Source of the DNA: Protonemura montana
Lineage: Eukaryota; Arthropoda; Insecta; Plecoptera; Nemouridae
DNA: 64,000 bases
Reading direction: 5' to 3'
Assembly (NCBI GenBank): GCA_947568835.1
Contig: OX387606.1
Coordinates: 22,235,225-22,299,224, forward strand
The notes under the pieces are model-generated. The model was not told the DNA's origin and ran no database searches. It saw only the letters and a program-made list of their open reading frames with translations. Positions 14,691-36,354 of this stretch are shown here, piece after piece. Position 1 is the stretch's first letter. Every line of letters begins with the position of its first letter. The translations under genes and the position numbers were made by a program.

Positions 14691-17600
14691 ATGCAGAAGC
14701 GCGATTCCAGAGAGAGGGAAAAAGATACATCAAGAGAAGAAGCTTCGAAGAGAGTTGCGCGTCCAAATACTAGTGTACCTGGAGGTACTAGAACTAACAT
14801 GCATACCAGTCGGCACAGTGTGTCCAGCAGTTCTGGGGTGCTGATGGTCGGCCCAAATTTTAGGGTCGGCAAGAAAATAGGATGTGGAAATTTTGGCGAG
14901 CTCCGACTTGGTATGTACAAGTATATTTGCATATTTTTGCCCCCCACCCTTTCTTCCCAAACCATAAGCAACAACACGCTATTCATGTATTACGAAGCTC
15001 CCCTAGCGCCGACTCTTTAGTCACGAAGGGTAGCCAAGTGACAGCTGCCAAGGCTCAAACCTTTAGCTCAAACATTGGCAATGGTCTCGCATTCGAAATC
15101 TCATTGACAGCCGGCTACTTAGCGAAACGAAACGCATGTATGTATACCAATTAGAACTGTCGTTATGACACTTTGACGGACGCATCGGACATCGAACTCG
15201 ACACCGCAGAGCAAGATATGCTCCGGATGTACCTATTGTTACATTGTAGCATGCCCATCTGACGTCAGTTAAGTTTAGCCTGTCCTTCGAACGCTTGGAC
15301 TTGATCGATTCTGTGTATGTCGAACTCCGATTTAGGAATGACATGCCCCGTACCCTGGCATGGCATGCAAACATCCGCCTGCCGGTCGGTCGGCGAATGC
15401 AATACACCTGCCACCGCGTTGGCAGTTGGCAAGCACAGACATTAGGTTCACGTGCGCGGATGGATGGAGGTGGTTCTCTAGCTTGCCAGACTTCTGCATG
15501 ACGTCATACTCGGTGGTCTTAGCTGAATATTCTGTGTCATAAATCACCTCACTGCTTCTAGCTCTGGCGGTGTTGTCGCGTGTGGTATTTACAAGTTAAG
15601 CAGATAAACCCATGCTAGAGGAAACCTCATCGCATCGGATCGTGAAGCCGCAATTGATTTCGAGTTACGTGCTTCGTCGGATGACCATGTATGTGGAGAG
15701 GTATTTGTCGTTACATCCGAACAAAGCTCGGGAACGCGGCGTGGCCGTTTATAATTGAACAAATCTAGGCCAATATGTTTGTCAGAGTTCTCACCACCTA
15801 ATATAAAGTGATCTGTGATCGCGTACTAGACCATACGAACACACTCGGTTTTACCCACCTATCTGTTTTATCAACTGCCATTCTTTCGCTTGTCAGATAT
15901 GGAGACCAGTGAATTAGCACTGCTCTTGTTCGTAATTGAATTTGAAATCTCGGTACCTGAAAGGGTGACATAATCCCAAGGTCCGGTCGATCGATGAGTC
16001 ACTTGGGGTGCTATTAGATCTATGTACCTCGGTACAGTTACCTCGTGGGTGGCAGACGCTACGAAATGGGTTTGCGTCAAATATAAACTTGCTTTATACC
16101 GGCCAGCGTGGATCGATAACTAATCCACACTTTTGCATCGCATCTCGGTTGAGTCTCCACTTGTCCCCACGGGAACCTGGGAGTCGTTGTCTCTCTCTCG
16201 CCGGGTCATCGAGAGGTGTACTCTAGAGGGGGTTGGCGGGGGCTCGCTTGGTCGGACACGTGCCGAACTGAGAACGTATGTCGTCACGAACACGGGGCAC
16301 GTTCACGCGCACGGGTTTTCTCTCCTGTCACAACTTGGTAAATTGGGGTTTGGAGTTCAGAACCGAAAGGAAGAAAGGGTTGCTTTCAGTTCTTATTCCT
16401 GGCATGCGGTGCTTCTGAGAGCGAGAGAGAGAGAGGGTCGTTTTTTACCGGGAAATGGTGTATGAAAAATTCATATCTTACTATTCTGGTAATTTATTGC
16501 CTCGCAGCATTGATGAAGTATCAGGGACATTTTCCAACCTCTTGAGAGATCGCATTACAGCGCAGGGTGTAACGCGACTTGCCACTTATCTTCCTGTATG
16601 TTCTATTTCAATTTGCCAAAGCCCTTTGCGTAAGGGACTCCAACCTTATGCTCAATCGTATTTCCATCGGGATAGACTTCGTGTCGTCCTTCCCACGCAC
16701 TCAGATGTTCCATTACGCATTACGCACTCTCGACGCCTCTGTCCTCGTGCAAGTCAATTGTGCGTTGCTTTGTGCGTAGCTCGACCAACGGCCTGGTGTT
16801 GAAATGATCGTTCATACGACACGATTCAATCTCGTACATCGGCTGGTGAGAACTTTTCATATGGCCGCCTCTAGTGGAGAACCAAGGACTCCAAAATCAG
16901 ACTAGCCAGTAGTCAGATTAGCCTGTCTTGGGCCTACGGGGGATGGAGCTGATCCCTCATGATCGTGCAGTGGTCCTATGACCCAACCAGTACAAACATT
17001 GCATCATTTCGAGCCGCTCTTTAAGGGCGGCGTTCTGGTTTGACTCATCCTGTTGCTTAAGGTATCAACCCCCAACTTATGGGAAGGTCGCCTGCTTCTT
17101 AGCGAAGACACTATCAGCGTTTGTACCTTAACACTGACAGCTGTCGGGTTGAAAAATTCCTGTCAAATTCCGACCAATTTCTCGCGACTGTTCGAGGGAA
17201 ATGACTCTCGCGCGTCGATCGATCGACCGACCGTTGACTTTATCGTCGCCGCCCCACGCACGCCGTTCGTGGAACACCGCGACATTTATCAAATATGAAT
17301 CCAATTACCTGACGAAAATCCGCCCGCCGTCGCTTCCTGCGTCATCACCGGGACCGCATTTTTTTCCCATATCACTTTGAAACAACTCCCCGACAGTCGG
17401 CTATCTCCAACGTGCCCCGGGCATGCGCCTTACGTACACCCCACCACTCGCCCACCTTGTTCTTTCTTCGTCTTTCCTGTTTACGCGGAATATCCCGAAG
17501 ACAAATTTATGCGAAGCTAAGCGCAATCCAGACCATCCATCCTCAAGAGCTACCGCTCTGCGTTATTCTACTTCCGGTCGGGCTAGGGTCCCCGTCAGTG

Positions 17601-20600
17601 AGAGTAGCCGTCGTTGCGGGAGCTGACCGGTACCCTCCATGTCCCTGGCATTGTCTGGGTTTGCAGACGTCTAAGTTGTCGAAGGCCAATCACCTTGAAC
17701 GAGTTCCGACCTGTCTCCGCCCGCCTTCCGTCCTCTCGGGCGCTTACCACGGCAACCAGTCGCCGTTCTTATTCACGGCATCGTTCAAAGCAGGCCGACA
17801 GCCCCGTCTTGTCTCGCATTCCAGGGTGTCGCTCAATCAAATCTAACTGTGGCAATAGTGGAAAAGATTCCCCCAAATTGAGTAACTCAACCAGGTTTGA
17901 TTGATACCGTTCTATCGAGGTAAAAGACAGTCTTGCCTGTTGGAGGAATTAATTAGTCGTGTCACCTTGTCTAGCCCAAGTCTCGCCGAACTCGCTTCAA
18001 ACATCGGTATCTGGTTCTGTTCATTGATCAAGATTCATTAGCAGAGATAACCGATAAGGGTTTACTTTTTATTACTTTATTGTTTTTATCATCGTTTATC
18101 TAGCGATGATAAATCGTCGAGAGCTGTGAGCCATTGCCCAGGGGGAAAAAGAGCAGCAATGGGGGGCAAGGGGCTGCAAGATCATTATGATTGACGTGGC
18201 TTGCTATTCGATTGATTCGGGATTTATCGCTGTAAGACATTTTCCATGTCTCTTTCTTGAGCCGACGCCGACCGGAGGGGCGCCGACGCCGCGTTCAGGC
18301 AGCTGCACAATTCTCTACGTTTGTTAGGCGACGCTTCGTGGCAAGGTCCCCGTTGTACGTGAGGACGCCGTTGACGACGTGTGGGCGATTCGTTTGCGTG
18401 ACTCGTGCATCGATGACACACCCGTGATACGTCATTCATCGCCCTCGGCGTCGTCGGCGTCGTCGTCCTTTACGGGTGGTCATTGCTCGCTGTGTTCGTA
18501 ATACCTCGCCAAGCTGGGGTCTAATAGCACTGCCGAGCTGGGGTCCTAATAGCACTGCCGAGCTGGGGTCCTAATAGCACTGCCGTGCTGTGTAATAGCA
18601 CTGCCGTGCTGGGGTCCTAATAGCACTGCCGTGCTGTGTAATAGCACTGCCGAGCTGGGGTCCTAATAGCACTGCCGAGCTGGGGTCCTAATAGCACTGC
18701 CGTGCTGGGGTTCTAATAATTTTTCGCAATGAATCGGCGGATACGAAATGATCATATTCAAGCACGTTAAAGTCGACGTCGTAGAAGTCCCCTTCGGCAG
18801 GATTATTCCCTGTTTATGAGCTCTCTTTCCTCCCGAAGTTCGGGCGGTTAACTTTGTACACGTTAAACCTAGAGTCTGCTGTGGTGGTGAGGGAAGGGGT
18901 AGGGCGTCGACATAATCACGGCCTACCTGCCGACTATCGGCGGTTTCAGAGCAAATTTTCTTCGTGGCTTTGCTCGGAAATCGATGCGCTCCCCCCTCTC
19001 CCCCTTTCCAGTGACGTCACTCAAGTTCTCACCTAATCCTGCGATGCTGCTCCAGGAAAAGTTAACCTTGTTAAAAAGTTGCCCGCGACTAGCGACGTCA
19101 GGACTGCGGACCGGCGTCGATTCGGCCAGGAGTTGCTCTGCGCGGGATCGTTGGCCCCGCGACCACCTGTTTGCCCCCTCCATCTCCTTGGGACGCCCAC
19201 GCAAAGCGCGGTTTGTTGACGCTACGCAAGGTCACATCAAGCTGTTGTCTGGACCCGATTACCCCCTTATGACGGGGGTCTAATGCCCCCCCCCCCTCAC
19301 ATTCGTGTCAACCCCTTGCAGCTATGTGATAGCCTTGATGCTTTGACAGCGACATCAGCGTCGCTAGAGTGCTTTTACCGGTCAGGAACAATGCTTGATC
19401 CAGAACAATGTCATGTTATTCCAACAACTCTCGCCCGGTTGTCCCGCTGGATGTAGAGGACCGGCAATCGATCGACTGGAAGGAAAGGAACATTTCGTGC
19501 TCGCCTATCAGCACGTCCCAGTGCGGCACGGCGCAATCTGCACTTTCTGCCGTTCGCGGTTTCCTCAGATTCATTTCCCGCCTAGGGCAAAGTGAGGCGA
19601 GGCGCTCAAAGAAAACCATCTCCCACCCGTCTGCCTTTCCGTTTCAGCAACAAATTGATTTCATCTTCCCTCCATTGTGCTCCACACATGCGGCGGCCGC
19701 GCAAGAAGATGCTGCTGCCTGAGATTATCATCGTATCCACCCCTCCCGAGCTTTTGTATCGACCCAGATGTAGATCGCTTCCCTGTGACTACGTTCGGGT
19801 GGAACATGGCGTGGGTCAAACGAACGTCATTCGCCCTCCCCCAGCCTCGAACCCCGCGCCCCGGCTGTCGTACGCCATGTTTGGCGCAATCAGTCCGCTG
19901 GCCGGTAATTCCAGAGTGCCAGGGTCAGCACGCTATATGTCCTACCTGTTGAAACCTCCCGCCCGTCCGAGTAAATAGGTACATGTATGTTTTCATGGGG
20001 ACGAAGCCCTGCAATCCACCCTCGTAAACAACTTGCAATAGAGTTGGTGTGAAATAAAGCGATAGCGCATCGAATGAGGGAAAGTGAGAGAGAGAGAAAG
20101 ATACAAAATAGGGACTGTAGAATTGTTCGCTCGAAGCCGCGAGTGGCTTTATCTTGTTAGTGCGAGATGCCGACTGCTATCTATCTCTCTCTCGCTCACA
20201 TATATATGTAACTGACAAGCGATTTCGTTCGTTTCGTTCGCTTTTTATGGGTTTCATCGTGACGTAATGCAAACAGCCGAATTGAGTGGAATATGTTTTC
20301 GACCCGAGTGAACCGTGCGAAGCCCTCCCTTGACATTGAAACCCGCGTGGCCGTGCACCACTTAGATCTGCCAGGCGATAAGATAAGAAATCAAGATGTG
20401 TTCACATAAAGCATATGGAAAATGATGCCAACACAGCGATATTTTACGCGATAGAGACTGGTTGAAGGTCATGTTCCCAATAAGATGGTAACCATAGGGA
20501 GCAGAGCGTGGAGCCCTAATGCGGCAGTCCTTTATTTCCAGCAGTTTAACAACAATGTCCTTGCCACAAAAATCCAGTCTTGCCGAGGTCGCTCAGAATG

Positions 20601-23600
20601 GAAATCCTGAGGTGGGAAAAGGTTTTCCCTGTTGATTTCCACTGTTAAAAGTGTCCTTCTGTTCCTGGCCGGTAGCTAAGGACTCTCTTCTTTGTTGCAG
20701 GCAAGAATTTGTACAACAACGAGCATGTGGCGATCAAGATGGAACCGATGAAGTCCAAAGCGCCGCAGCTGCATTTGGAATATCGGTTTTACAAACTCCT
20801 AGGATCTCATGGTAAGTTGGGGCAGGTCCTAGCGTAACAACAACCTACTTCAATGCTAGTTTTGGCACTCGCCGAGGTCTACAATGGCTTTGGCTAGAGT
20901 GATTACTTGCCAGGGAAGTTATTGTTCTCATTAAGCGTTGATTTACTGATAGATTTTCTATCCAATGTCAAGGTGTTATGTTCAGCATTGATTACTTAAT
21001 CTTAAGAAAGTCGAGCCAAAGACCAGACCAACCATAGAGATCCACCTTGCTTATATAGAAGACCAGAGGACCAACTCACAATGGGGATTCAGAATAATTT
21101 TCCAATTTAATTTAATTTAATTTTTAGTGACAAGGCAGTTGTTCTTTGAGGGCAAAAAGCCATAGACAGGAGATGAAAACTTTCAAGTGAGGAACACATT
21201 AGGCAATGACAGATAATGTTCAGCGTAATTATGTTAAGACACTATTTTATGTCATTTTGACACTCGCAAATGATTGCGGAGGATGGTTTTAGAAAAAATT
21301 CGTATAAAAATCACCGTATGTTGATCGCCTATGATCTTGTCCCTGAGCTTGCCAATTAGAATCACTTAAATGATAGATATTTAAAGAAACAAATTTAATA
21401 TTGAATTAGATGGTCATCACGCCTAATCTCCAAGTCTAGTAAAGCTTATCAACGCCTTGACAGCATAGATTTGGGGACGAACCTTCTGTTAGAGTTATAT
21501 TGACATTTGCAGGGGGGGGGGGGGGGGGGGTAAGTTGATGGTTTCTTGGGTGCATTTTGTCTTGGTTGGTGCCTTCCATGCACATTTGGATTCTGCCCTC
21601 GAAGAACAGTTACCTGGGTCGACCGGATAGGATTGCTAGGATAAGCACGGTGGACCTACCTCTGTTATGACTTAACTTATTTGTTAACTAGAACTATAAT
21701 ATTTCCTAGCAGATTGCAACTTATGGCAATCCAATGCTAATTTTTGCCATACAATTAAAGTGTTTTACTGTTACGTGGAATGGTGGAAATGCTGGAGCTT
21801 CCAATGCAGTCGAAATAGAAAGATTTAGTCAGGTTAGGAAAATTATTTTTTTCTAAAGATTGCCGTCAAGTGAGATCATTTGGAACTTCAAGTATGTCGG
21901 CGACAAATCAACGCAAAAGCAAGCTCATTTGACTGATGTAACGGGTTTTTTGTTTTTGTTTTGTCAAAATCCCTCAAAGTTCCACTCAAAGATTTTGCAG
22001 GAAGTAGTTGCCAGTTGTTGAAAGGCATCTGTATTTTAATATAAAATAGACTGTCCTTGGGAGATGAGGGCAGTGCAACAAAGTAGGGACGTGGGAAGAA
22101 TTTGGATTAATTAGCAAATTTCAACAGTAGAAAAGTCTAATCGCAGAAAGTAGTTTTCACTACAGAGATTTTATGTTCAATTTTCCTAGAATTTACCATG
22201 GGTTTATCTGATTAAATTAAATGCCTTTTCTGAAAAAAGGTCATCTTTATCATAGATTTACCTTTGCCTCTACTGAGCCTTCTCATCAGGAAACAAAAGA
22301 CGAAAGACTTTCCAAAAAAAAATTATAGTAGAAGCCTTTGGATTGAGATTTGACATTGGCATTTTGATGGGTTCTAAATTTCAAAAGATTTTGCGACTGC
22401 TTGAAATTGTTGTAACGCTGGTGTCTCCACCGAGATGGGTGGCCGGCTGGCATGACTGCCTTGTGTGGCGCTATGCAAAGCAAGCCAAGCAAAGGAGCTG
22501 TGTGCCGAATTCTAGAAGGAGTCCCTCGAGTGTACCACATCGGCACATGCGGCGGCCGGTACAACGCCCTGGTCATGGAACTCCTGGGGCCCAGCCTGGA
22601 GGACCTCTTCGTCATATGCAACCGCCGCTTTACCCTGAAAACTGTCCTGATGATAGCGATCCAGCTCGTAAGTGCGATCGAAGCCGAGTCTGGGCGAGCG
22701 CGGCCAATCGAACGGCCGCACTCCAATTGTGTGTCGTGTTTTCTTGCGTTTTCTCGTGTGCGAGCGGCGAAAGCAGACGTGGCTTTCCTCGTTCCTTCCC
22801 TCAGTTCCCATCGCCCTGCTCTCGCCGCTCCCACCTAGTAGTTAGCTCCTCCCATCCAGTAGTTAGCCCCTCCCATCCAGTAGTTAGCTCCTCCCACCCG
22901 CCCAGCCCAGCCCGCCGGCTTGCCGCGATCGCAACTCGCCGCTGATCGATGTGTTTGTTCTGTCCGTGTCCCGGCTTCACCCTAGACGGCATCCCCGAGG
23001 TTTTCTACTTCGGTCCTTGCGGCAAATACAACGCGTTAGTTATGGAACTGTTAGGTCCGAGTCTCGAGGACTTGTTCGACCTTTGCGGACGAAGGTTTTC
23101 GCTGAAGACAGTTCTTATGATCGCCACTCAACTCGTAAGTACTGGTCTCTCTGCGGTGCATGTCCAGTCCTTTCCTCCCCTCTTCTTCCTCCCCTCACTC
23201 GCTTTCTGACAACAGGTTCGTTTGGTTTCACCCTCTCTTAATCTCAAGCATCAATTCTAGAGGTTCCAGAGTCTTCTTCAACCAGCTTAACTCACTGACT
23301 CTCGGAGAAAATGGCAATCCTTGTTCATGTTTCTTGATCAAAATTGAACTCTTGTGCTAGCACCTTTTAAAAATACATTTTTAGATGCCATAATCATGCT
23401 GATTTATCAATTTCCATTGTAATTGGAACTAATACTTATTGGCTTTACGTTCAATCTTGCAGTCAACTCAAAATAAATAATCTTTTTTGATGATTTTCAA
23501 GCGATTGTCTTTCGTCACTTGCCAGTCAATAGGAGTGGGAAGAGTCTTGGCACGAAACTCTGTTTCTATTATTAGCTGGTCCCAAATAAATAACCTAAAC

Positions 23601-26600
23601 CACCTCGATGTTTCGAGAAACCTGTTTCCCACATAACACACCCGTACATTCTTCATCTTTGCTTTGCCCATTGTTGACCTGAAGAGGAGCTGTAGCCAGC
23701 GTAACAATGGTAGCTTCGGTGCTTGCCAAGGGCTGGCTGGGTGCGGTGGTGGTGCCTGCCTTGGTGCTTATTGCCAAACATTTTACAATATATGTGTTTA
23801 TCCACTTCCCAGCTGTTTTCATATCAATGTGTGCTGTTATCTAAGGAGATTTAATACACTTCACTTTTGATGGAATCAATACTATATCAATATATATCAA
23901 TACAATACGCTTTGGAAGTTAAACTGAGTCTAAACTTGCCCCTAAAAAAGTGGTTGAGTGTTTTTTTTCTCCAAAGAACCAAGATAGCAAAGGACTTTTC
24001 CTAATTTGAATTAAATTTTCCTGTAACTTTATTTTGACAGCTCAACTGAACTCAATATTAAATCAGTGCAGCCATTCTGTTTCATTCTGTCTCATTCTTT
24101 CATTGGTCACATTTCATGGACCTAATTTTCAAATGAGCAAAAGTTGAGAACAGATTCTCAAGCTTATCGACCCTGACCCGCGCTGTTTCGTGTTTGTGCT
24201 GTTGCCTAATCGCCGACCAATTCTGTTCCAGTTGCACAGGATAGAATTTGTTCACGGGCGGCATTTAATCTACAGAGATGTGAAGCCGGAGAACTTCCTA
24301 ATCGGTCGTAGTACGACTAAAAAGGACAAAGTGATTCATATTATAGGTGAGTGAGACCAACTTTCAATCAGCTACAATATATCTGCTGACTAAACTTTGC
24401 GAGATCTTGAAAATACACCTGCTAAGCAAGTTAAAAACCTGGCATCTCAAACTCTGTTCTTTGATGAGCCTAGTGAGCGGAGCAAGATCTTTCACTTCAC
24501 TTAACCCAGAAAAAAATCACTTGTTTATGATGGTTTTTAGACTCATGTCTACTTTATTTATCCTTAGCACTAGTTTTAAGAAAAACTATTTGAACTGAGT
24601 TTTGAATGCTAAGTAAAAGGGCTACTAAATTTCCCGACGTTTCGCAACATACACTAGTTACTTCTTCAGAGGACTGCACAAACCTCTGAAGAAGTAACTA
24701 GTATATGTTGCGAAACGTCGGGAAATTTAGTAGCCCTTTACATAGCATTCAAAACCCAATTCAAATAGTTTTTCTTAAATCACTTGTTTGTTTGTTTTTC
24801 CCCTTTTTTGTTTGCGCTGTGGCGGCCAAACACCCGCTCCGATTTAAAAATTGTCGTATTTTACATGAGCTTATTTTATTGCCAAAGGTATTTTATATTT
24901 TTTCACCGAACTTTGCTACGGAAATGCATCAAAATTGAGTAGTTTCGAAGTTTTTGAGCTCATTTAAGTTTTCTTCCTCTTTTTGCTAGCCGATTTAGTT
25001 TTGTGAATTTTGGCTGTTTTAGTTTGATCTATGAAATGGATCGACTTCAGATTATGCAACTTACAATGCAACTAAAATTGCGTTCGCTAAGCCTTAGTCA
25101 TTCATACTTGGCAAAACAAACCTCTGATCACAAAACAAATGTAATTAGCTTTTTACAATGACAAATGAAGAAGTCGTTTCCGGTTCACAACGAGATGTTT
25201 GTTTCTGTTCCAGACTTTGGTTTAGCGAAAGAGTACATAGACTTAGACACAAACAAACACATCCCCTACCGGGAACACAAAAGTCTGACGGGAACAGCGC
25301 GGTACATGAGCATCAACACGCATCTCGGGAAAGGTAAGTTCAACTCGAGATAAGCTGACAATCCACTTACTGATGGACAGATAAGTGTCCATTGTGCTGT
25401 TACTCAAAACAGTTAATGAACGAATCATATCGATTCAATGCTTATCAGGTGGACCATTGTCTCCTTCACAAGTATGTGCTCGAACTGTGTGTAAACAAGC
25501 TGGCCTTGCTGGGCTGAAATGTTGACCACCAAATAGAGAGGAGCCATCAATTTTCTCTGCAAATTCAATTAGAAACTCGGTAACAATGCCTTCTTAAAAG
25601 TCCCTTCAAGATGACACTTTAAATCCTTGTGGTCCGTGGGAATCCCACTTTTTAAATCGCTGTGCAAAGTTATTGGGATATATTTGTTCAATAACAGAGC
25701 ATCAGTGGGAAGTATATATGTTCAACTACAGAGCATCAGTGGGAAGTATATATGTTCAACCACAGGGCATTAGTGGGAAGTATATATGTTCAACTACAGA
25801 GTATCAGTGGGAAGTATTTATGTTCAACTACAGAGCATCAGTGGGAAGTATATATGTTCAACTACAGGGCATCAGTAGGAAGTATATATGTTCAACTACA
25901 GAGCATCAGTGGGAAGTATATATGTTCAACTACAGAGCATCAGTGGGAAGTATATATGTTCAACTACAAAGCATCAGTGGGAAGTATATATGTTCAACTA
26001 CAGAGCATCAGTGGGAAGTATATATGTTCAACTACAGAGGATCAGTGGGAAGTATATATGTTCAACTACAGAGCATCAGTGGGAAGTATATATGTTCAAC
26101 TACAGAGCATCAGTGGGAAGTATATATGTTCAACTACAGAGCATCAGTGGGAAGTATATATGTTCAACTACAGAGTATCAGTGGGAAGAATATATGTTCA
26201 ACAACAGAGCATCAGTGGGAAGTAAATATATGTTCAACTACAGAGCATCAGTGGAAAGTAAATATGTTCAACTACAGAGCATCAGTGGAAAGTATATATC
26301 CCACTAGTTTATTCAACAGGTCTGCTCAATATTAATACAACACAATTTTATTCAACCATTTTTACAATAGTAATAGAGAAACCAATGTCTTGAAAAAATT
26401 GTTTAACCAGGAAAGGGTTATTTGATGATTTGTCCAATTCCTCCAGCGATTGTTTAACTTTTCCCGACTACACGGCTGTTTGTAGGCACGTGTTTGAATC
26501 GTAAATAATTCCCTCGCTTCCTTCCAGAACAAAGCCGGCGCGACGACCTCGAAGCACTGGGCCACATGTTCATGTACTTCCTCCGCGGTAGTCTGCCATG

Positions 26601-29600
26601 GCAAGGTCTCAAGGCCGACACGCTGAAGGAACGCTACCAGAAGATTGGAGACACTAAACGAGCCACGCCCGTCGAAGTGCTCTGCGAAGGCCACCCCGAG
26701 GAACTGGCCACCTATCTACGCTACGTGCGTCGACTAGACTTCTTCGAGACCCCTGACTACGAGTACCTACGCAAACTGTTCCAGGACCTGTTCGAGAGGC
26801 GCGGCTACGTGGACGACGGAGAGTTTGATTGGACGGGGAGAGCGATGGTGAGTAACCATGCGTCCCCCCAAGTGGCCCACGCGTCTGCAGTGCAGAACCA
26901 CCACTGAATCCTCGCTCGGGAACACGCCCGGGCTTTTATAAAAACGTTTATTTGTTTGTTTTGGTGCGGAATAAACGGCCTGCTCCGTACTCGGCAGCGT
27001 GGTCTGCTTGGTTTTTCATTTGTGATTGTGAATGGTTGATTTCTGTACTCGATAGCATGCTAATGGTTGGCTATTTGAGCATGGATGGCCAATGAGCATG
27101 TTGCAATTATATCTGCAAGCCAAGTAGTTGCCGATTAGAAACGTTTTCGTATCCATTTCGTCCCGTTAGGCTTGCTATCAGGACTGGCCTTGTGATTCGA
27201 GGAGGATATTTTAATTGCGTCGCTTCGAGTGGATTTGATGTCTGCATGTTTTCTTTCGTTGCATGCTGCTTCCTCTTAGCAACCAAACTTTTTCGAACTC
27301 AGACAGATCAGGAACGCGCCACCTTCCCACGTTGGGAAGACTAAGTCGGACAAGGTGAGTGGCGTAGTTGTGGCGTACATGTGGCATGTAGCTAACTTTC
27401 GACACGAAGACGGCAGAGTTTAAACTCTGTTCTCGCAAGTTTAGGCGTTAAGTAGTTATCACCGTGGTTGCAAGCCTCGGCAACCCATGAAAGCAGTCTG
27501 TGGGTTAAACTTAAGTTTATACCCACAATTGACATAGCAATATGCACAAGCACAGAGCGAATATAACGGTCACCGGCCACCTTCAGTTTCGAATCTGCAG
27601 CTACACAAAGTAGACTTTGTCTCGGCTGTCACTCGTGTTTCCAGTCGAGTACATTTGAGATTATATTGAAGTATATTACATGTTACAGTAAGAAAGACAC
27701 AAAAGTCTATGTTAAATTTCACTCCACAAATTTCAAATTTCACTGTAATTCCATAAGTAGCAGTGAGGTAGCAATGGTTTTTGACCGTCTGTACGAGCAC
27801 ATAATCTAAAAACAGAGCACTCAACAACGTCCCACTTCGTCAATCAGCCAAGATTGTCTGCCATGTTTGTTAAAATAATGTTCTGTGATTGGTTGACGTA
27901 AGTACAGAGCAGAAGAAGTTGGAATATTTCAATTTTCAACATTGTAAAATGTTATGCTTGTTGTGACAATGGTGTGCAGTCCCATATGATAACCAAGTTT
28001 TAAGATCTTTGTGCGCTATGCTTGTGCTTATTGCTATGTCAATTGTGTGCAGTCCCATATGATAACCCAGTTTTAAAATCCTTGCGTGCTATGCTTGTGC
28101 TTATTGCTAGGTCAATTGTGTGTAGTCCCATATGATAACCAAGTTTTAAGATCCTCGTGCGCTATGCTTGTGCTTATTGCTATGTCAATTGCGTGCAGTC
28201 CCATATGACAACCAAGTTTTAAGATCCTTGTGTGATATGCTTGTGCTTATTGCTATGTCAATTGTGTGTAGTCCCATATGATAACCAAGTTTTAAAATCC
28301 TTGTGCACTTATTGCCATGTCAATAGTAGGTGGACCTTGGAACTCTGGTTTGCGTTTTGGTAGTCGAGCCCGTGCATGGAAACGCTGTACAAAATTGACT
28401 CTGGTTTCCTATTTCAGTCGACTCCAGTAGGCTCCTTGCAGACGGGGCATGAGATCGTCGTGTCACCCAACAGAGACCGCCACCAGACGGGAAACAAGGT
28501 ACAAACGTACACCGTACGAACGGCTAGCGATCGCGTGTGCATGTCTCGTCTGATTTCACCAGCGTTAGGCTAAAATTGGTTAAAACTCAGCTTAGGCTCA
28601 AGATTTGATAGTCTCTAAATCGGTGAAATTTTGCAAACGTCAAGCAAGTAAATTTAGGCAAGTTAAATGGGGTGAATGGGAGTAAATGGGGAATGGGAGT
28701 AGGGGAGTTGAAATGAAAAGTGCGTGTTTTGTGTTATGGAAATATCACTGGCACTATTTTCTTTGAATTCGAAGAGCGGGTTAAAATTTAAACTTCCGTT
28801 GATCCAGGTTCAAATTTTAAATGGAAATCAGCACAAAGTGAAAATATTGACAGCTACAGCATCGCATTTGTTTGCTGTGATTGAACAGTGTCCACTTAAA
28901 TTAATACCACATTTGAATTCCAAATTCCCATCTTTTTTCGAGTATTTGTGTAATTATCTCGTTTTAACGATTTTACCTGTTTTACGGTTGTGGTCTGAAT
29001 AGAGGAGGCTTGAGACCCTAAAAAGGCCGTACAAACTCGACGTTTCTGCGAGGTATAAACCGGCATCTTCAGGGAAATCTATTTAAACGTGTCGGAAAAT
29101 CAGCAAAACTAAATTTGACTTTAAAACTCAAGTTCAAACCTAGTTTAGCCAGACGTTGGTGAAATCTGCTGTCACTGTTACCAACTGTTACACCGTCTTG
29201 CCAACAGGCGTTCGATGCATTCGAAGACCAGCTTTTGTTTATCGAGGTCAGGATGAAATCTCACTCAAGTTTGTTGCTAACTCGTTGAACGCTCGAGTAG
29301 ATTACTTGCGAGAAACTTGAAGACATTCTTAGATTTGGCTTCTTAATTTGAACGTACAGAGTTGTGTGATAGGGAAGAGGAGAGATTACCGGCATTGACA
29401 AAATCTGGTTTCAAACTCAAATCAGATCTTTCTCAACCGTGGCGATCTTTCCTCTTCCCCTCAAAAAACACCAACCTATCCACAGTCTTTCCATTAACAA
29501 CTAGAATTAAATTTTGTTTCCTCGGTAATTATCTGCTTGGCTATTGATGTGCGCAATGTTTGGCCCATATTTCGTCGTTAAAAACTCCAACAGTAGAAAC

Positions 29601-30853
29601 TTCCAAGTTAACGCAAGGTTCGGGGTTAGAGTCCCCGTTTGGGAATACATTTTTCGGAGGTTATTAGTGTTCCTGATGATAAAATATTATTTCTTAATAC
29701 AAATTCATTCCTTTCCAAGAATTTGTTGAAAATTAAAATAAAGAAACAGTCCTTTACTAACGACTTTCTGATGTTATTAGTGTTCATAATAACAAAATAA
29801 TACTTTGCCCATCGCAAGCATTTGCAATTTAAATCGGATTTCATCGTTCTGCATTCCCTCTGCGAGTGTATTTTGTCCCCGTTGCTTTGCTAGTTGCGCC
29901 GTACTAACACAGCTAGTGGCGTGGCGTGTTACTAACCTTCGTGTGTGGTTTGCGCAGAACGCCGGGAAGGGCGTGGCAGCGTGGCCTGACGTGCCTCGGC
30001 AAGGACAGACGTTGGGCCAACTGACTCCGGCAGACAGACACGGTTCCGTCCAGGTTAGTTCACTCAAACCATACATAACCGTACATTGCCATAATAATAA
30101 TTTTATTCGCAGTATACAGTGTCACATGTTATGCTTCGTCAACTTAAAAATAAAATGAAAAGAACATCTAATAGTATAATGTACATAAGGACACCAATCT
30201 AATATTTTTAGTTATAGTCGGTCCAATGCCTAACCATACACAGCCATGCACGGCTATTTGTGCAGTTAAGTACTCGAGATCCAAAGAAGCCGAGACACAG
30301 TTTAGTGCCAAGAAAACTCGAGGTGGCCGGTGACCGTTAATGCAGCTGTTCTTGTGCTTATCACCATTGCTCTGTCAATTGTGGGTGGAGCCCAACTACC
30401 ATCGCAGGTATTGTTTTGTCCAACTTGTTGTGATTGGTTGCGCAGGTTGTGAGTTCGACCAATGGAGAGCTCGGTGCGGACGACCCAACGGCCGGTCACT
30501 CCAACACGCCAATCACAGCGCAGGCAGAGGTGGAGATCGTCGACGAAACAAAGTAAGTCTCTTCTCCGGCACGCCTGTCCAAGGCCATCCAAACTCGCGA
30601 GAATCTGGAAATCTGTGGACCTAGATCTGCTAGGTTTGTCTAATTAAAAGACGCGACGGTTTCTTTGTGAATCAAGAAGTGTCCTATTGAGAAACGGCCG
30701 CAGATTGCCGCGGCGTTGGATGGCCTTCGACAAAATGTACCGCCCGCCGCACGCTGACTAACCCGTTAAAGGTTCCGTCTGTTCTTGCAATGTGTCCTCA
30801 GATGTTGCTGCTTCTTCAAGCGCAAGAAGAAGAAGTCGGGACGGCAGAAGTGA
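14691..30853 (+). CDS. CSNK1G: Casein kinase 1 gamma (gilgamesh orthologue), complete
   Basis: Membrane-anchored Ser/Thr kinase of the CK1 family, acting in Wnt/LRP6 phosphorylation and vesicle trafficking (family knowledge). Exons: 14691-14910, 20701-20811, one of 22516-22667 or 22986-23134, 24232-24346, 25214-25333, 26528-26847, 28418-28498, 29958-30053, 30446-30552, 30802-30853. Phases agree throughout, giving 456 or 457 residues. Seen: glycine loop GCGNFG (64-69), VAIK lysine 86, catalytic YRDVKPEN (Asp176), DFG (199-201), the CK1 signature [19 protein letters not shown], and the C-terminal [16 protein letters not shown] whose cysteines are the palmitoylation tail of CK1-gamma. The C-terminal exons ([29 protein letters not shown]) closely match fly gish as I recall it. 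Intron 1 is 5.8 kb and GC-rich. The ATG is the first in an open exon; an upstream non-coding exon is possible. Confidence 0.95.
14911..20700 (+). other. CK1-gamma intron 1, GC/CpG-rich
   Basis: The 5.8-kb first intron. From about 15100 to 20300 it is visibly richer in C, G and CpG than the flanking AT-rich DNA. It gives many chance open frames on both strands, none of which resembles a known protein. It contains a 25-bp minisatellite. It could include promoter or enhancer sequence (inference). Confidence 0.55.
18512..18718 (+). repeat. 25-bp minisatellite
   Basis: About nine copies of a ctggggtcctaatagcactg-type unit of 25 bp. A shorter 21-bp variant lacks ggtc and reads gtgctgtgtaatagcac. 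Two variants interleave, which suggests unequal exchange. Confidence 0.85.
21440..21530 (+). repeat. Decayed 5S-SINE body and G19 tract
   Basis: 21440-21510 matches the SINE body (aagcttatcaacgccttgac, agcatagatttggggacgaa). A run of 19 G follows at 21512-21530. In CK1-gamma intron 2. Confidence 0.55.
22516..22667 (+). CDS. CSNK1G: CK1-gamma alternative exon 3a
   Basis: A 152-bp exon bounded by ttctag and GTAAGT, entering in phase 1 and leaving in phase 0, exactly like exon 3b. It encodes [20 protein letters not shown], then [14 protein letters not shown] and [15 protein letters not shown]: strands beta4-beta5, the hinge and alpha-D/E of the kinase lobe. The [10 protein letters not shown] and ICNRRF segments resemble fly gish as I recall it. 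It is one codon longer than exon 3b and begins 470 bp upstream of it. Splicing both in would break the frame (152 + 149 = 301), so the two should be mutually exclusive. Confidence 0.85.
22986..23134 (+). CDS. CSNK1G: CK1-gamma alternative exon 3b
   Basis: A 149-bp exon bounded by caccctag and GTAAGT, with the same phases as exon 3a. It encodes [19 protein letters not shown], then [14 protein letters not shown] and [15 protein letters not shown]. This is the version closest to vertebrate CSNK1G1-3 ([16 protein letters not shown]). The two exons share the invariant hinge block [11 protein letters not shown] but differ before it and in alpha-D. The 318-bp intron between them is short and CpG-rich, with a three-fold repeat of a cccatccagtagttagc-like unit near 22842-22895. 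Confidence 0.88.
24563..24779. repeat. R2 palindrome with two hammerhead-like cores
   Basis: Near-perfect inverted repeat with arms of about 95-100 bp. Outer ends are agaaaaactatttgaactg and its complement; the inner part carries cgacgtttcgcaac / gttgcgaaacgtcg and tcttcagagg / cctctgaaga. On each strand CTGAAGA is followed by GTAAC, an 8-nt loop, GTTGC (able to pair with GTAAC) and GAAACG. In CK1-gamma intron 4. Confidence 0.8.
25676..26305 (+). repeat. 34-bp minisatellite
   Basis: About 18 copies of a 34-bp unit (agtatatatgttcaactaca followed by gagcatcagtggga). Because 34 is not a multiple of three, all three frames stay open and look like repetitive proteins, but it lies in CK1-gamma intron 5 and is not coding. 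The last copies have a few indels. Confidence 0.95.
26848..26975 (+). other. Possible alternative 3' end of CK1-gamma (intronic poly(A))
   Basis: If the donor after 26847 is not used, the frame continues for 19 codons ([19 protein letters not shown]) to TGA at 26905-26907. An AATAAA signal follows at 26970-26975, with T/G-rich sequence about 30-60 bp beyond. Such a transcript would encode a kinase that lacks the C-terminal CCCFF tail. The open frame and the signal are visible; that it is used is inference. Confidence 0.4.
27950..28330 (+). repeat. 73-bp minisatellite
   Basis: Five copies spaced exactly 73 bp (cagtcccatatgataaccaa at 27977, 28050, 28123, 28196, 28269). In CK1-gamma intron 6. 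The same unit occurs in NELF-C/D introns at 44350-44520 and, inverted, at 43160-43320. Confidence 0.9.
28552..29177. mobile_element. R4 element with terminal inverted repeats
   Basis: Ends are imperfect inverted repeats of roughly 40 bp: tctgatttcaccagcgttag at the left and the complement of cagatttcaccaacgtctgg at the right. About 625 bp long with no transposase-like ORF, so non-autonomous. On the minus strand a CTGAAGATGCCGG ... GCAGAAACGTCG motif lies inside the right end (29040-29074). In CK1-gamma intron 7. Confidence 0.55.
29599..29848 (+). mobile_element. tRNA-derived SINE 3' portions
   Basis: 29620-29700 has the box B-like ggttagagtccccgtttggg and the ggttattagtgttcc end. 29764-29848 has a second 3' end finishing in gcatttgcaatttaaatcgg. 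In CK1-gamma intron 7. Confidence 0.6.
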
Positions 30854-33427: not shown

Positions 33428-36354
33428 ATGTTTCTGGAGCGCGAGAAGAAAATCGGAAGGTTCAGAAAAATGCAGCAAGCGGTGCAGTACCCGAACTCTC
33501 AGGTTTTCCATTTCAGTGGAGAGAATTTGGCAAGCTCACAGAAAGGGCACAAGCCGACTGCCGACTCAGCCAAGCTCAGTTTCTTGCACGAGGAGATCGC
33601 ACCGTGCCTTTCTCGTGCTAAATGGCTCGGCAATCTGCCTTTGTATCCCACGGGCACTGGTAAGAAGCAATACTGACATGACAGCTATTCTGTTCGATTG
33701 ATTGTCAATTTGAGTAAACCTAGGTACAAGTACCAATTGCAACTTTTAGATAGTGAATAATAATAATAATCGCAATGAAACTCGTTGCAGGTGAGTATGT
33801 ATTCAATAATACCAGCACGTATACCAGCACTAATACCAGTATTAATACTTTCAATGTTACAGAACTTAAAAATAAAAGTACTAAACAATATAATAAAACT
33901 AAAATAATTATAAAAAATATTACTTTTAATAATAATAATAATTAGATAACATTGAACAATTTAGGTAAAAGATATAATTTTAGGTTCGTGAAGTCATTAT
34001 TTTAAGCTAAAAAGCTACTTGGCTCTACCCATATGTGTTTATTTAACTTTTTTAGTCCTGATTTTTTCTTAACTTTCTCTAATTTCCTTAAGTTGATTGT
34101 TAATGTGCTAAAGGGCTGGGATAACGAGAATGTTGATTGGGTAAGTAAAGGTAGAGTACGGAACTTACCGAGCAAGTGTGGCAGGTCGCGATAGTAGAGA
34201 TTCTTTGTCTTTGTTTAACGTTTCGGCTGTTGTTCCCCTCTGAAGAATTCCCTTTGTGACGGAAGAGGGGTGAGCTGAACAAAGTGATTGCTTGCAGGCG
34301 TAGAGTTCAAGTGGTTCTCCTGGTGGATGCTCTACTCTGTGGCAGCCTACCTCGGATCACTGGGTCTTATCGTACCAACGTTGAAACGTCTCAGCAATCC
34401 CGAACATTACACCAGCCGATTCGATGAGATCCTCTTCTCCGAGATGTACATAGCAATGTTTGTACCCTACCTGTTGACTCCTGTCACAAGCTGGCTGGAT
34501 TCACCTCACATTGCTACGTATTTTAACAGCTGGGTGACATTCCAGGTAAGAGCCAACTTCTGGTACCGAAGAATAAATATAGGGACTCGTCTTTTTAATA
34601 TTATGTTCAATTATACTGCCCTTCGATATTATTATTTCTCTCATTCCACCATTATTTACCACCGTGAAACCATTAATGGCCTCAGAGAAGGACAACCAAT
34701 CTTAACTTTTTCAATCAAGAACTTATTGTCATTATACCATTATTTCCTCTATTCATATTATCATTAATCATTATACTCCAAGTCACTTTACATATCTCTA
34801 TTAAATACAAATAACATAGGTAATCATAGGAAGATATTTCCAGAAACTATACCTGGAAGTGGTTGGTAAACCCTTGGAGCTCAACTTCCGCCGTTGGACA
34901 TCAAGAATGGTTCACTTAAACAGCATCAACTCCCTGTTACCACCATGCCTCTGGATCGTAATCCCGCCGAACCTCACGCCCCTGGGAGCTTTCACTCTTT
35001 ATATATACTGCCTTCTGTATGCATTCCCTATGTCTATGATCTGGCACTACAGCTGCAAGGGTTTCGAGGTAGCTGGACAAAACATCGCTGACTCCTTCCA
35101 GGTAAGATATTGTTGTCAGTTCAAAGATTAAAAAAAAAAAATATATGTTTTTTACTCCCTTTTGATCATTTACGTTGTGTTGTCAGCGTTATTTCCACAT
35201 ACTTAATATGTGTTACATACAAAGCCAATTCACCTTAAATCACAGTTTATGCAACTTGTCAATTTTATTATTTTTTGAAAATCTTTTAAAAAGGACTTTG
35301 AAATTCAGACCTTCACTCGTAAGCTTGTTCTGTAAAGCGTTGTAAAGATTTTCACCAGCGTAAATCGGAGTCCTTGAGGAAAATTGGTGTAAAACCGTGT
35401 AAAACCTGAAACAAATGCTACGGTTTCAGAAAGAACTGAACGACAAGGTCACCTTGATCGCGGCCAGCAAGGTGAACGAGTTCAAGCGACTTTGGCTGAA
35501 GCTTAGCGAGCTGCCAAACGAGCTGAGCTACGCTATGTATCGAACTTATGTAGTTAAGACGCTAGTCATGTTCTTCTGCATGACCCTGTCTCTCTACGGG
35601 ACTCTCAACTTTCTGCAAAACCACGATGCACTAAGGCTGGGAATATTTCTCTCCACGTTCATCTTTAGCTTGGGCCCATTTTACGTCATGTGTAATTCTG
35701 CACATTGGGTACCAATCCACGTGAGTGAATGTAGCCTAGGAAAAAACACAGCTAAAGACTTGTCACTTTGACACATTAGTGATTATCCATTATAACTATA
35801 TCCATTTCAAAGCCATCTAGAGACATTTTTGCCAAAAAGCAAATGGAAAGAAATTCATGGGGGGTTTGTAATGGCATCTTCTCCCACATGAAAGACTGAT
35901 TCTATTCTTGCAGATCAGTGAAAAAGTTGGGAATATTTTGAAGTACTACGCACCATCAGAATTTCATACACCAGTACGCGATGAGGTAAATCGAGAAAAC
36001 CAAGAATAAATAATTTCTTAGCAAAGGGAAGTCATGCTTTGATAACTTGTTTTATTATTTCTGTTGCCCAAACAGATGAATGCTTTCTTACAAGTAACAT
36101 TTACACAGAAATGTTCGATGAATGTGGGAGGATACATACACTTTGACAGGCAACTCCTTCAAGCTGTAAGTCTTAGTCTACTTTTTGCTACGACCGGGAA
36201 GGGATAGATTTTGTCTGCCGTGTTGAAAAATGTTTAATTGTTTCAGGCTGGAACTACGGCAGTCACGTATTTGATTGTGCTGCTTCAATTCAAAATTAGT
36301 TTGCCTGAAGATGAGGATCAGAATGGCAACAAAACTCTCTTAAAGACTAATTGA
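33428..36354 (+). CDS. Gustatory receptor, CO2-receptor-like, complete
   Basis: Seven-helix chemoreceptor (7tm_7/Gr family), a ligand-gated cation channel subunit of taste or olfactory neurons. Exons 33428-33659, 34298-34545, 34844-35101, 35430-35720, 35914-35985, 36076-36165, 36247-36354 join in phase to 432 residues, the usual size for the family. Hydrophobic segments: WWMLYSVAAYLGSLGLIV, MYIAMFVPYLLTPV, INSLLPPCLWIVI, LYIYCLLYAFPMSMIW, LVMFFCMTLSLYGTLNF, LGIFLSTFIFSLGPFYV, and the last helix with the family signature TYLIVLLQF. The short final exons with phase-0 introns are typical of insect Gr genes. The blocks SFDEILFSEMYIAMFVPYL-like and RLWLKLSELP resemble the Gr21a/Gr63a (CO2) clade as I remember it; this sub-assignment is tentative. 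No stop, frameshift or bad splice site was seen. Confidence 0.88.
34125..34250 (-). repeat. R1 repeat beside receptor exon 2
   Basis: Reverse-oriented copy (gttgattgggtaagtaaagg ... aacgtttcggctgttg) ending about 50 bp before the acceptor of gustatory-receptor exon 2 at 34298. Confidence 0.65.

What the first reader, a model, noticed from the sequence alone, without database searches (positions are those of the whole stretch)
22516..23134. Tandemly duplicated, apparently mutually exclusive exons in the CK1-gamma kinase domain
Seen: two exons of 152 and 149 bp, each with good AG/GT sites, identical entry and exit phases, and homologous products differing at many positions ([11 protein letters not shown] versus [17 protein letters not shown] versus DLCGRRF). 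Including both would shift the frame. The exon covers beta4-beta5, the hinge and alpha-D, next to the ATP and substrate sites, so the two isoforms could differ in substrate choice or regulation. The first type resembles fly gilgamesh and the second vertebrate CSNK1G as I recall them, so the pair may be old in insects; I cannot tell whether it is already described.
Basis: partly seen in the sequence, partly recalled or inferred. Interest (0 to 1): 0.75.

Follow-up and report, generated by a model that had tools for sequence, protein, structure and literature searches.

The report
Two interchangeable exons in CK1-gamma kinase
A gene for a signalling enzyme carries two old, slightly different versions of one piece side by side, and only one can fit into the message at a time, so this animal can probably make two forms of the enzyme; the arrangement is of a known kind.

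Summary
Exons 22516-22667 (152 bp) and 22986-23134 (149 bp) are tandem duplicates inside a 10-exon CK1-gamma (gilgamesh) gene, with AG/GT sites, phase 1 entry and phase 0 exit. Either gives a full-length kinase (421 or 420 aa); both or neither gives a frameshift and early stop. They share 37 of 50 residues while synonymous sites are saturated (pS 0.88, pN 0.16), so both have long been constrained. 3a matches fly Gilgamesh isoform I best, including one extra residue; 3b matches human CSNK1G best and keeps the ancestral length. Best reading: mutually exclusive splicing, enforced at least by reading frame and NMD. The hinge is identical, so altered ATP binding is not supported; differences lie in beta4, the beta4-beta5 turn and the end of alphaD. 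RNA pairing over the 3a donor is suggestive only. The exon tree is unresolved and no RNA reads could be examined. A gish mutually exclusive exon event is reported from fly CNS, exons not named in the passages seen. New member of a known kind.

The parts
14799..14910 (+). CK1-gamma coding exon 1 (start codon choice inferred; an upstream in-frame ATG is at 14691)
   Evidence: assembled model with one terminal stop
20701..20811 (+). coding exon 2, ends in phase 1 just before the alternative pair
   Evidence: 36 of 36 residues identical to fly Gish-I
22516..22667 (+). alternative exon 3a, Gilgamesh-like ([17 protein letters not shown]...VICNRRF), 152 bp, weakest acceptor of the gene
   Evidence: best exon-level PDB match 4nt4 Gilgamesh isoform I
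22668..22985 (+). intervening intron, 318 nt, 61% GC (flanking introns 39% and 40%), stable predicted fold
22671..22686 (+). 5' arm of a predicted stem overlapping the 3a donor (candidate, single-sequence evidence)
   Evidence: pair probabilities 0.58-1.0 with 22916-22936
22916..22936 (+). 3' arm of that predicted stem, 50-70 nt upstream of exon 3b
22828..22899 (+). 3.4 copies of a 21-nt repeat (CTCCCACCCAGTAGTTAGCTC) in the intervening intron
22894..22913 (+). candidate arm complementary to 23730-23749, whose pairing would loop out exon 3b
   Evidence: 1 of 300 shuffles reach the score, 3 of 300 with local composition kept
22986..23134 (+). alternative exon 3b, CSNK1G-like ([16 protein letters not shown]...DLCGRRF), 149 bp, ancestral length
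23730..23749 (+). candidate partner arm in the downstream intron
24232..24346 (+). coding exon 4, joins either 3a or 3b in phase 0
25214..25333 (+). coding exon 5
26528..26847 (+). coding exon 6, end of kinase domain
28418..28498 (+). coding exon 7
29958..30053 (+). coding exon 8
30446..30552 (+). coding exon 9
30802..30853 (+). coding exon 10 with the [11 protein letters not shown] tail and the stop
   Evidence: Gish palmitoylation signal SRCCCFFKR in PMC4900676 passages

Best explanation
This is an old tandem duplication of CK1-gamma exon 3 whose two copies are used one at a time. SHOWN: the anatomy, the frame incompatibility, saturation at synonymous sites with strong protein conservation, and the exon-level match of 3a to fly Gish-I and of 3b to vertebrate CSNK1G. 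INFERRED: splicing joins exon 2 to either 3a or 3b and then to exon 4, giving two full-length membrane-anchored kinases; any 3a+3b or skipped product is removed by nonsense-mediated decay. INFERRED: 3b is the ancestral and default exon (ancestral length, better acceptor), and 3a the derived, regulated one (weak acceptor, donor predicted to be buried in a stem), switched on in particular tissues. INFERRED: the two forms share ATP binding and core catalysis and differ on the N-lobe surface (beta4, beta4-beta5 turn) and at the end of alphaD, so they probably differ in partner or regulator binding, perhaps substrate choice.
For: Exon coordinates, phases and frame tests; complete 10-exon gene, 421 and 420 aa, with either exon. 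37 of 50 aa identical, codon-position identity 37/44/19 of 50, pS 0.876 (saturated) against pN 0.160; 10 of 17 codons differ inside an identical 17-residue block: neither copy looks dead and there is no sign of recent gene conversion. Exon-only PDB search: 3a best to Gish-I (79.4 bits; gamma-2 72.3), 3b best to human gamma-3 (88.3 bits; Gish-I 66.1). Five columns, one of them an insertion, split 3a+Gish-I from 3b+human gamma-1/-3, plus a sixth where 3a and Gish-I share R. The host's own delta-like gene has one exon 3 of 149 nt with the same two splice positions and phases; it, the host alpha-like gene, human gammas and a ciliate-like CK1 (L001) lack the extra residue. Weakest acceptor at 3a. 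Intervening-intron fold z -3.1 with 0 of 100 shuffles as stable; z -2.5 for the same intron and -3.9 for the overlapping tile at 22632, third and second lowest of 58 windows after a foldback repeat. Fly CNS RNA-seq reports a gish mutually exclusive exon event, IncLevel 0.42 control, 0.20 treated (PMC11765297, passages; exons not named there).
Against: No RNA evidence from this species; exclusivity is inferred from frame alone. The exon tree is unresolved: AU tests do not reject 3a+3b as a host-specific pair (p 0.18) nor 3a+3b+Gish-I (p 0.45), and two columns (60, 62) plus R at 79 group 3a with 3b instead. By plain identity 3a is as near to human gamma-2 (39 of 50) as to Gish-I (39 of 51). Gish-I also has five residues just before exon 3 that neither host exon has. 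NMD is assumed from general knowledge. The 3a acceptor is weak enough that 3a could be used rarely. RNA pairing was tested on one sequence; whole-duplex tests found no excess complementarity, and by the local score the best pairing inside the intron is a different one (22680-22719 with 22938-22978; 2 of 500, 15 of 500 with local composition kept), which overlaps the 5' arm of the donor stem.
Confidence: 0.86

Rival explanations
1. One copy is a relic: splicing uses only 3b (or only 3a) and the other is a decaying exon.
For: Weakest acceptor of the gene at 3a; no transcripts could be seen.
Against: No stops, canonical sites, 37 of 50 aa kept with saturated synonymous sites. 3a keeps the signature of a fly protein that has a solved structure (4nt4).
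Confidence: 0.05
2. The second exon acts mainly as a poison switch: joint inclusion or skipping lowers CK1-gamma dose through NMD, and the protein difference is secondary.
For: Both joint inclusion and skipping give early stops. In 629 human MXE clusters, 377 contain exons of lengths not divisible by three, and MXE-joining reads are reported (PMC5740500, passages).
Against: A poison exon needs no conserved kinase sequence; both copies encode a conserved kinase segment.
Confidence: 0.06
3. The pair is host-specific: 3a and 3b arose in this lineage after its split from flies, and the Gish-I likeness is convergence.
For: AU test does not reject 3a+3b monophyly (p 0.18); three columns group 3a with 3b.
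Against: A shared one-residue insertion in the same turn plus H, T, R, I and R shared with Gish-I; lnL 5.0 lower when 3a and 3b are held together.
Confidence: 0.12
4. Exclusivity is made by RNA structure: a stem hides the 3a donor (22671-22686 with 22916-22936), and a long-range pairing (22894-22913 with 23730-23749) loops out 3b and so favours 3a. This would add to the best explanation rather than replace it.
For: Fold z -2.5 to -3.9; 5' arm paired in contexts of 619, 819 and 1219 nt; long-range pairing reached by 0 of 100, 1 of 300, and 3 of 300 shuffles with local composition kept.
Against: One sequence, no covariation; several pairings were scored. Introns 2 and 3: 51 of 60 shuffles reach the score; intron 2 and intervening intron: 20 of 100, 24 of 200, 137 of 200 with local composition kept; whole-duplex energies show nothing. 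A different intra-intron pairing scores best locally, and the two stems are adjacent rather than clearly competing.
Confidence: 0.25

Closest known systems
Tandem duplicated, mutually exclusive exons (human and fly surveys PMC5740500, PMC9741552)
   Same: Adjacent, homologous, near-equal length, same phases, frame-incompatible.
   Different: Exclusivity not shown by RNA here; I could not open the fly gene list (154 genes, supplement) to see whether gish is in it.
FYN tandem duplicated exons (PMC9741552 passage)
   Same: Duplicated exons inside a kinase, including part of the N-lobe; isoforms differ in binding.
   Different: FYN's pair spans the SH2-kinase linker and the ATP-binding site; here the hinge is identical and changes lie on beta4, its turn and alphaD. 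A separate event in a tyrosine kinase.
Drosophila gilgamesh (gish) isoforms
   Same: Same gene family; Gish-I carries the 3a type (PDB 4nt4); 12 or 13 splice variants described (PMC3737179, PMC5515886 passages); an MXE event in CNS (PMC11765297 passages).
   Different: Passages seen describe variants by promoter, by C-terminal anchor and a shorter isoform in male bodies (PMC8055025); [quoted passage not shown] Presence of a 3b exon in fly could not be checked.
JNK (MAPK8/9/10) alternative kinase-domain exons (recalled, no call)
   Same: Homologous alternative exons within a Ser/Thr kinase domain.
   Different: Different part of the domain, independent origin.

Membership tests
CK1-gamma (CSNK1G / gilgamesh) | Kinase domain closest to CK1-gamma among CK1 kinases | tested here: met
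   Top PDB matches of both isoform segments are Gish-I and CSNK1G1-3, ahead of delta, epsilon, alpha and yeast CK1
CK1-gamma (CSNK1G / gilgamesh) | C-terminal cysteine cluster with basic tail (palmitoylation signal) | tested here: met
   [16 protein letters not shown] at the C-terminus; SRCCCFFKR in Gish (PMC4900676 passages)
Mutually exclusive tandem duplicated exons | Adjacent, homologous, similar length, same entry and exit phase, valid splice sites | tested here: met
   152 and 149 bp, phase 1 in and 0 out, AG/GT, 37 of 50 aa
Mutually exclusive tandem duplicated exons | Joint inclusion or skipping gives no full-length protein | tested here: met
   Frameshift and stop in both cases
Mutually exclusive tandem duplicated exons | Each mature transcript contains exactly one of the pair | not testable with these tools
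   No RNA reads for this species
Mutually exclusive tandem duplicated exons | Both exons under coding constraint | tested here: met
   pS 0.876, pN 0.160
Exclusion by steric hindrance | Donor to branch point under about 50 nt (criterion in PMC5740500 passage) | tested here: not met
   Intervening intron 318 nt, AG-free stretch before 3b 75 nt; the branch point itself was not mapped
Exclusion by U2/U12 incompatibility | One exon flanked by U12-type sites | tested here: not met
   All ten donors start GT and all ten acceptors end AG; donors around the pair are GTAAGT, none U12-like (U12 consensus recalled)
RNA-structure-governed exclusion (docking/selector) | Complementary intronic elements beyond chance | tested here: inconclusive
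   Intron fold and one long-range pairing exceed shuffles, others do not
RNA-structure-governed exclusion (docking/selector) | Conserved or covarying pairing across species | not testable with these tools
   No other arthropod genome available; scans of viral and genome contigs gave no arthropod relative

The most novel reading that the evidence does not exclude
CK1-gamma in insects carries an ancient two-state switch in its kinase domain: an ancestral, vertebrate-like form (3b) and a derived form (3a) with an enlarged beta4-beta5 turn and a changed alphaD end, chosen through an RNA stem that buries the 3a donor. If so, the fly Gilgamesh isoform I that was crystallised and used in cell assays represents only the derived form, and partner or substrate data obtained with it need not hold for the other.
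Probability: 0.3. Interest if true: 0.6.

Novelty: new member of a known kind. Interest (0 to 1): 0.4.

Why it matters
CK1-gamma/Gilgamesh acts in Hedgehog and Wnt signalling and olfactory learning (PMC4900676), in degradation of the Hippo regulator Expanded (PMC6768662) and in germline stem cell maintenance (PMC5515886; passages of each). A choice between two kinase-domain surfaces would add a regulatory layer that genetics with single-isoform cDNAs would miss, and the pair is a natural two-variant experiment on what the beta4-beta5 turn and alphaD do in a CK1 kinase.

Tried and rejected
Relatives: three scans of viral contigs and two of genome contigs. Searches confirmed 0 of 30, 16, 74 and 96 matched stretches; one search confirmed 1 of 177, a ciliate-like CK1 on a contig filed as a bacterial MAG (L001). 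No arthropod comparison beyond PDB was possible.

Retrocopy idea: a processed copy would have shown which isoform is transcribed in the germ line. Of 17 own-genome matches to the 165-aa segment, those outside this gene are at most 65% identical, so no close processed copy was seen (only best candidates are scored).

Whole-intron duplex energies gave no excess complementarity (z from 2.4 to -0.9) and long meaningless duplexes; replaced by a local pairing score.

Short-intron hindrance, a distant branch point and U12 incompatibility were considered and do not fit.

Pfam on the 165-aa 3a-isoform segment gives Pkinase at 60.9 bits (cut-off 31.7); the pieces of exon 6 and exon 1 scanned alone gave no family.

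Papers: ten searches were answered; four lists were cut short (25 of 223, 20 of 4412, 20 of 21, 15 of 730) and one search had no hit. I opened 15 papers, passages or single sections only. The five papers (CSNK1G plus MXE), apart from none opened, and the one were seen as listings. Main texts of PMC3228551, PMC3303723, PMC5740500 and PMC9013439 have no occurrence of gish or casein. Supplementary lists could not be opened. Two honeybee papers and a Daphnia paper that hold the word gish cite the BLAST author.

Host name: a search for insect odorant receptors did not complete. TTAGG arrays are abundant, but the places listed are interstitial, and of 16 contig ends fetched one bears TTAGG and three bear TTTGG arrays. 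That the host is not a fly is therefore a weak inference.

Full report
OBSERVATION. The window holds a complete CK1-gamma gene on the + strand. I assembled ten coding exons from 14799 to 30853; with 3a the product is 421 aa and with 3b 420 aa, each with a single terminal stop and a [11 protein letters not shown] tail. Exon 3a is 22516-22667 and exon 3b 22986-23134. Both enter in phase 1 and leave in phase 0, have AG acceptors and GTAAGT donors, and the frame is open from exon 2 to exon 5 with either one. With both or with neither the frame breaks and stops follow. The pair is the longest of three direct-repeat families in 20812-24231. In the 258-Mb own genome the 3b exon peptide finds 3b, 3a, and one exon each of a delta-like and an alpha-like CK1 gene.

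BOTH COPIES ARE CONSTRAINED. Over 50 aligned codons the peptides agree at 37, identity at codon positions is 37, 44 and 19, pS is 0.876 (beyond correction) and pN 0.160. A copy that had drifted at synonymous sites to saturation without function would not be expected to keep its frame and three quarters of its residues. In the identical 17-residue stretch [17 protein letters not shown] 10 of 17 codons differ, which argues against recent gene conversion.

WHICH IS WHICH. As 165-aa and 164-aa segments both isoforms match Drosophila Gilgamesh isoform I (4nt4) first; exon 2 is 36 of 36 identical to it and exons 4-5 are 68 of 78. Exon by exon, 3a fits Gish-I best (79.4 bits, next gamma-2 72.3), whereas 3b fits human gamma-3 best (88.3 bits; Gish-I 66.1). 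Five columns, one an inserted residue, separate 3a+Gish-I from 3b+human gamma-1/-3, with a sixth where 3a and Gish-I share R; against this, two columns and a third weaker one group 3a with 3b, and plain identity of 3a to gamma-2 (39 of 50) equals that to Gish-I (39 of 51). Gish-I also has five residues before exon 3 that the host lacks. The inserted residue is absent from human gammas, the host's delta-like and alpha-like genes and a ciliate-like CK1, so 3b has the ancestral length and 3a the derived one. The host delta-like gene has one exon 3 of 149 nt with the same two splice positions and phases, so this exon is an old unit of the family that was duplicated in the gamma gene; the alpha-like gene does not have the downstream intron there. 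A tree of the exon alone (9 rows, 51 columns) cannot settle the order: support for 3a+Gish-I is 63/57, and three AU tests of other groupings reject none (3a+3b p 0.18; 3a+3b+Gish-I p 0.45; 3b+human gammas p 0.48, slightly better than the free tree).

HOST. The genome is 258 Mb in 34 contigs. TTAGG arrays are abundant (7938 forward and 7633 reverse matches of five units, overlapping counts, reversed-pattern control 1 and 0), but the listed ones are interstitial. Of 16 contig ends fetched, one is a 40-unit TTAGG-type array, three are pure TTTGG-type arrays of at least 119 units, one reads N and the rest show neither. An arthropod is likely from the gene itself; that it is not a dipteran (dipterans are recalled to lack TTAGG telomeres) is a weak inference. 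If it is not, the shared 3a signature puts the pair before the split from flies.

MECHANISM. Frame incompatibility plus nonsense-mediated decay is enough to make the pair exclusive at the protein level; 377 of 629 human clusters contain exons of lengths not divisible by three (PMC5740500, passages). Steric hindrance does not apply (318-nt intron) and no site is U12-like. The intervening intron is GC-rich (61% against 39% and 40%) and folds better than shuffles: z -3.1, 0 of 100; z -2.5 in a second run; the overlapping tile at 22632 gives -3.9; only a foldback repeat scores lower among 58 windows. In that fold 22671-22686, which overlaps the 3a donor, pairs with 22916-22936, and the pairing persists in longer contexts. 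A local pairing of 22894-22913 with 23730-23749 is reached by 0 of 100 shuffles, 1 of 300, and 3 of 300 when local composition is kept. Against this, introns 2 and 3 (51 of 60) and intron 2 with the intervening intron (20 of 100, 24 of 200) are not special, whole-duplex energies show nothing, and inside the intron the best local pairing is a different one, 22680-22719 with 22938-22978 (2 of 500, 15 of 500). With several tests made and one sequence, I treat RNA control as a lead. Together with the weak 3a acceptor it suggests 3b as default and 3a as the regulated exon.

FUNCTION. The hinge is the same in both forms, so a changed ATP site is not supported. Differences lie in the alphaC-beta4 loop and beta4 ([10 protein letters not shown] against [10 protein letters not shown]), the beta4-beta5 turn (TCGGR against PCGK), the end of alphaD (VICN against DLCG), and two further sites (T/S and I/T) (element names recalled from general kinase knowledge). 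I therefore favour a changed binding surface over changed catalysis; this is inference.

WHAT IS KNOWN. Duplicated exons of this kind occur in about 1% of human and fly genes (214 and 154 genes; PMC9741552, section 14 read), and FYN has such a pair reaching into its kinase N-lobe (passage). [quoted passage not shown] An rMATS study of fly CNS lists gish among genes with mutually exclusive exon changes without naming the exons in the passages I saw (PMC11765297). In ten searches, several with capped lists, and in passages of 15 opened papers I found no description of a 3a/3b choice in CK1-gamma; the fly gene catalogues and FlyBase could not be opened, so it may well be annotated. I file it as a new member of a known kind.

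Noticed in passing
Own genome G000: C1 end (L031), C11 end (L041), C13 start (L042), C16 start (L044): Two terminal repeat types: pure (TTTGG)n of at least 119 units at three contig ends in telomere-like orientation, and a 40-unit (CCTAA)n at one, which turns into CCAAA units on its inner side. Five-unit TTTGG: 1056 forward and 717 reverse matches; the reversed-pattern control is uninformative because it reads the same arrays. 12 of the 16 ends fetched show neither (one of them N).
   Followed up: partly
24575-24779: Foldback element in intron 4: 57-nt arms 98% complementary with a 10-nt loop, flanked by 46-nt arms (91%); MITE-like.
   Followed up: partly
25679-26299: 34-bp tandem repeat, 18.2 copies, 94% matches, in intron 5.
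   Followed up: no
22828-22899: 21-bp minisatellite, 3.4 copies with GTAGTTAG and CTCC-rich units, between the alternative exons; possible splicing-factor sites.
   Followed up: partly
21512-21530: Run of 19 G in intron 2.
   Followed up: no
34288-35771: Several + strand open frames look by eye like gustatory-receptor exons; Pfam gave no match for three of them.
   Followed up: partly
L001 9800-10400: CK1 gene with in-frame TAA/TAG that reads through with ciliate-type TAA/TAG=Q, on a contig filed under a Desulfosporosinus MAG (DYPS01000051.1): likely eukaryote contamination.
   Followed up: partly
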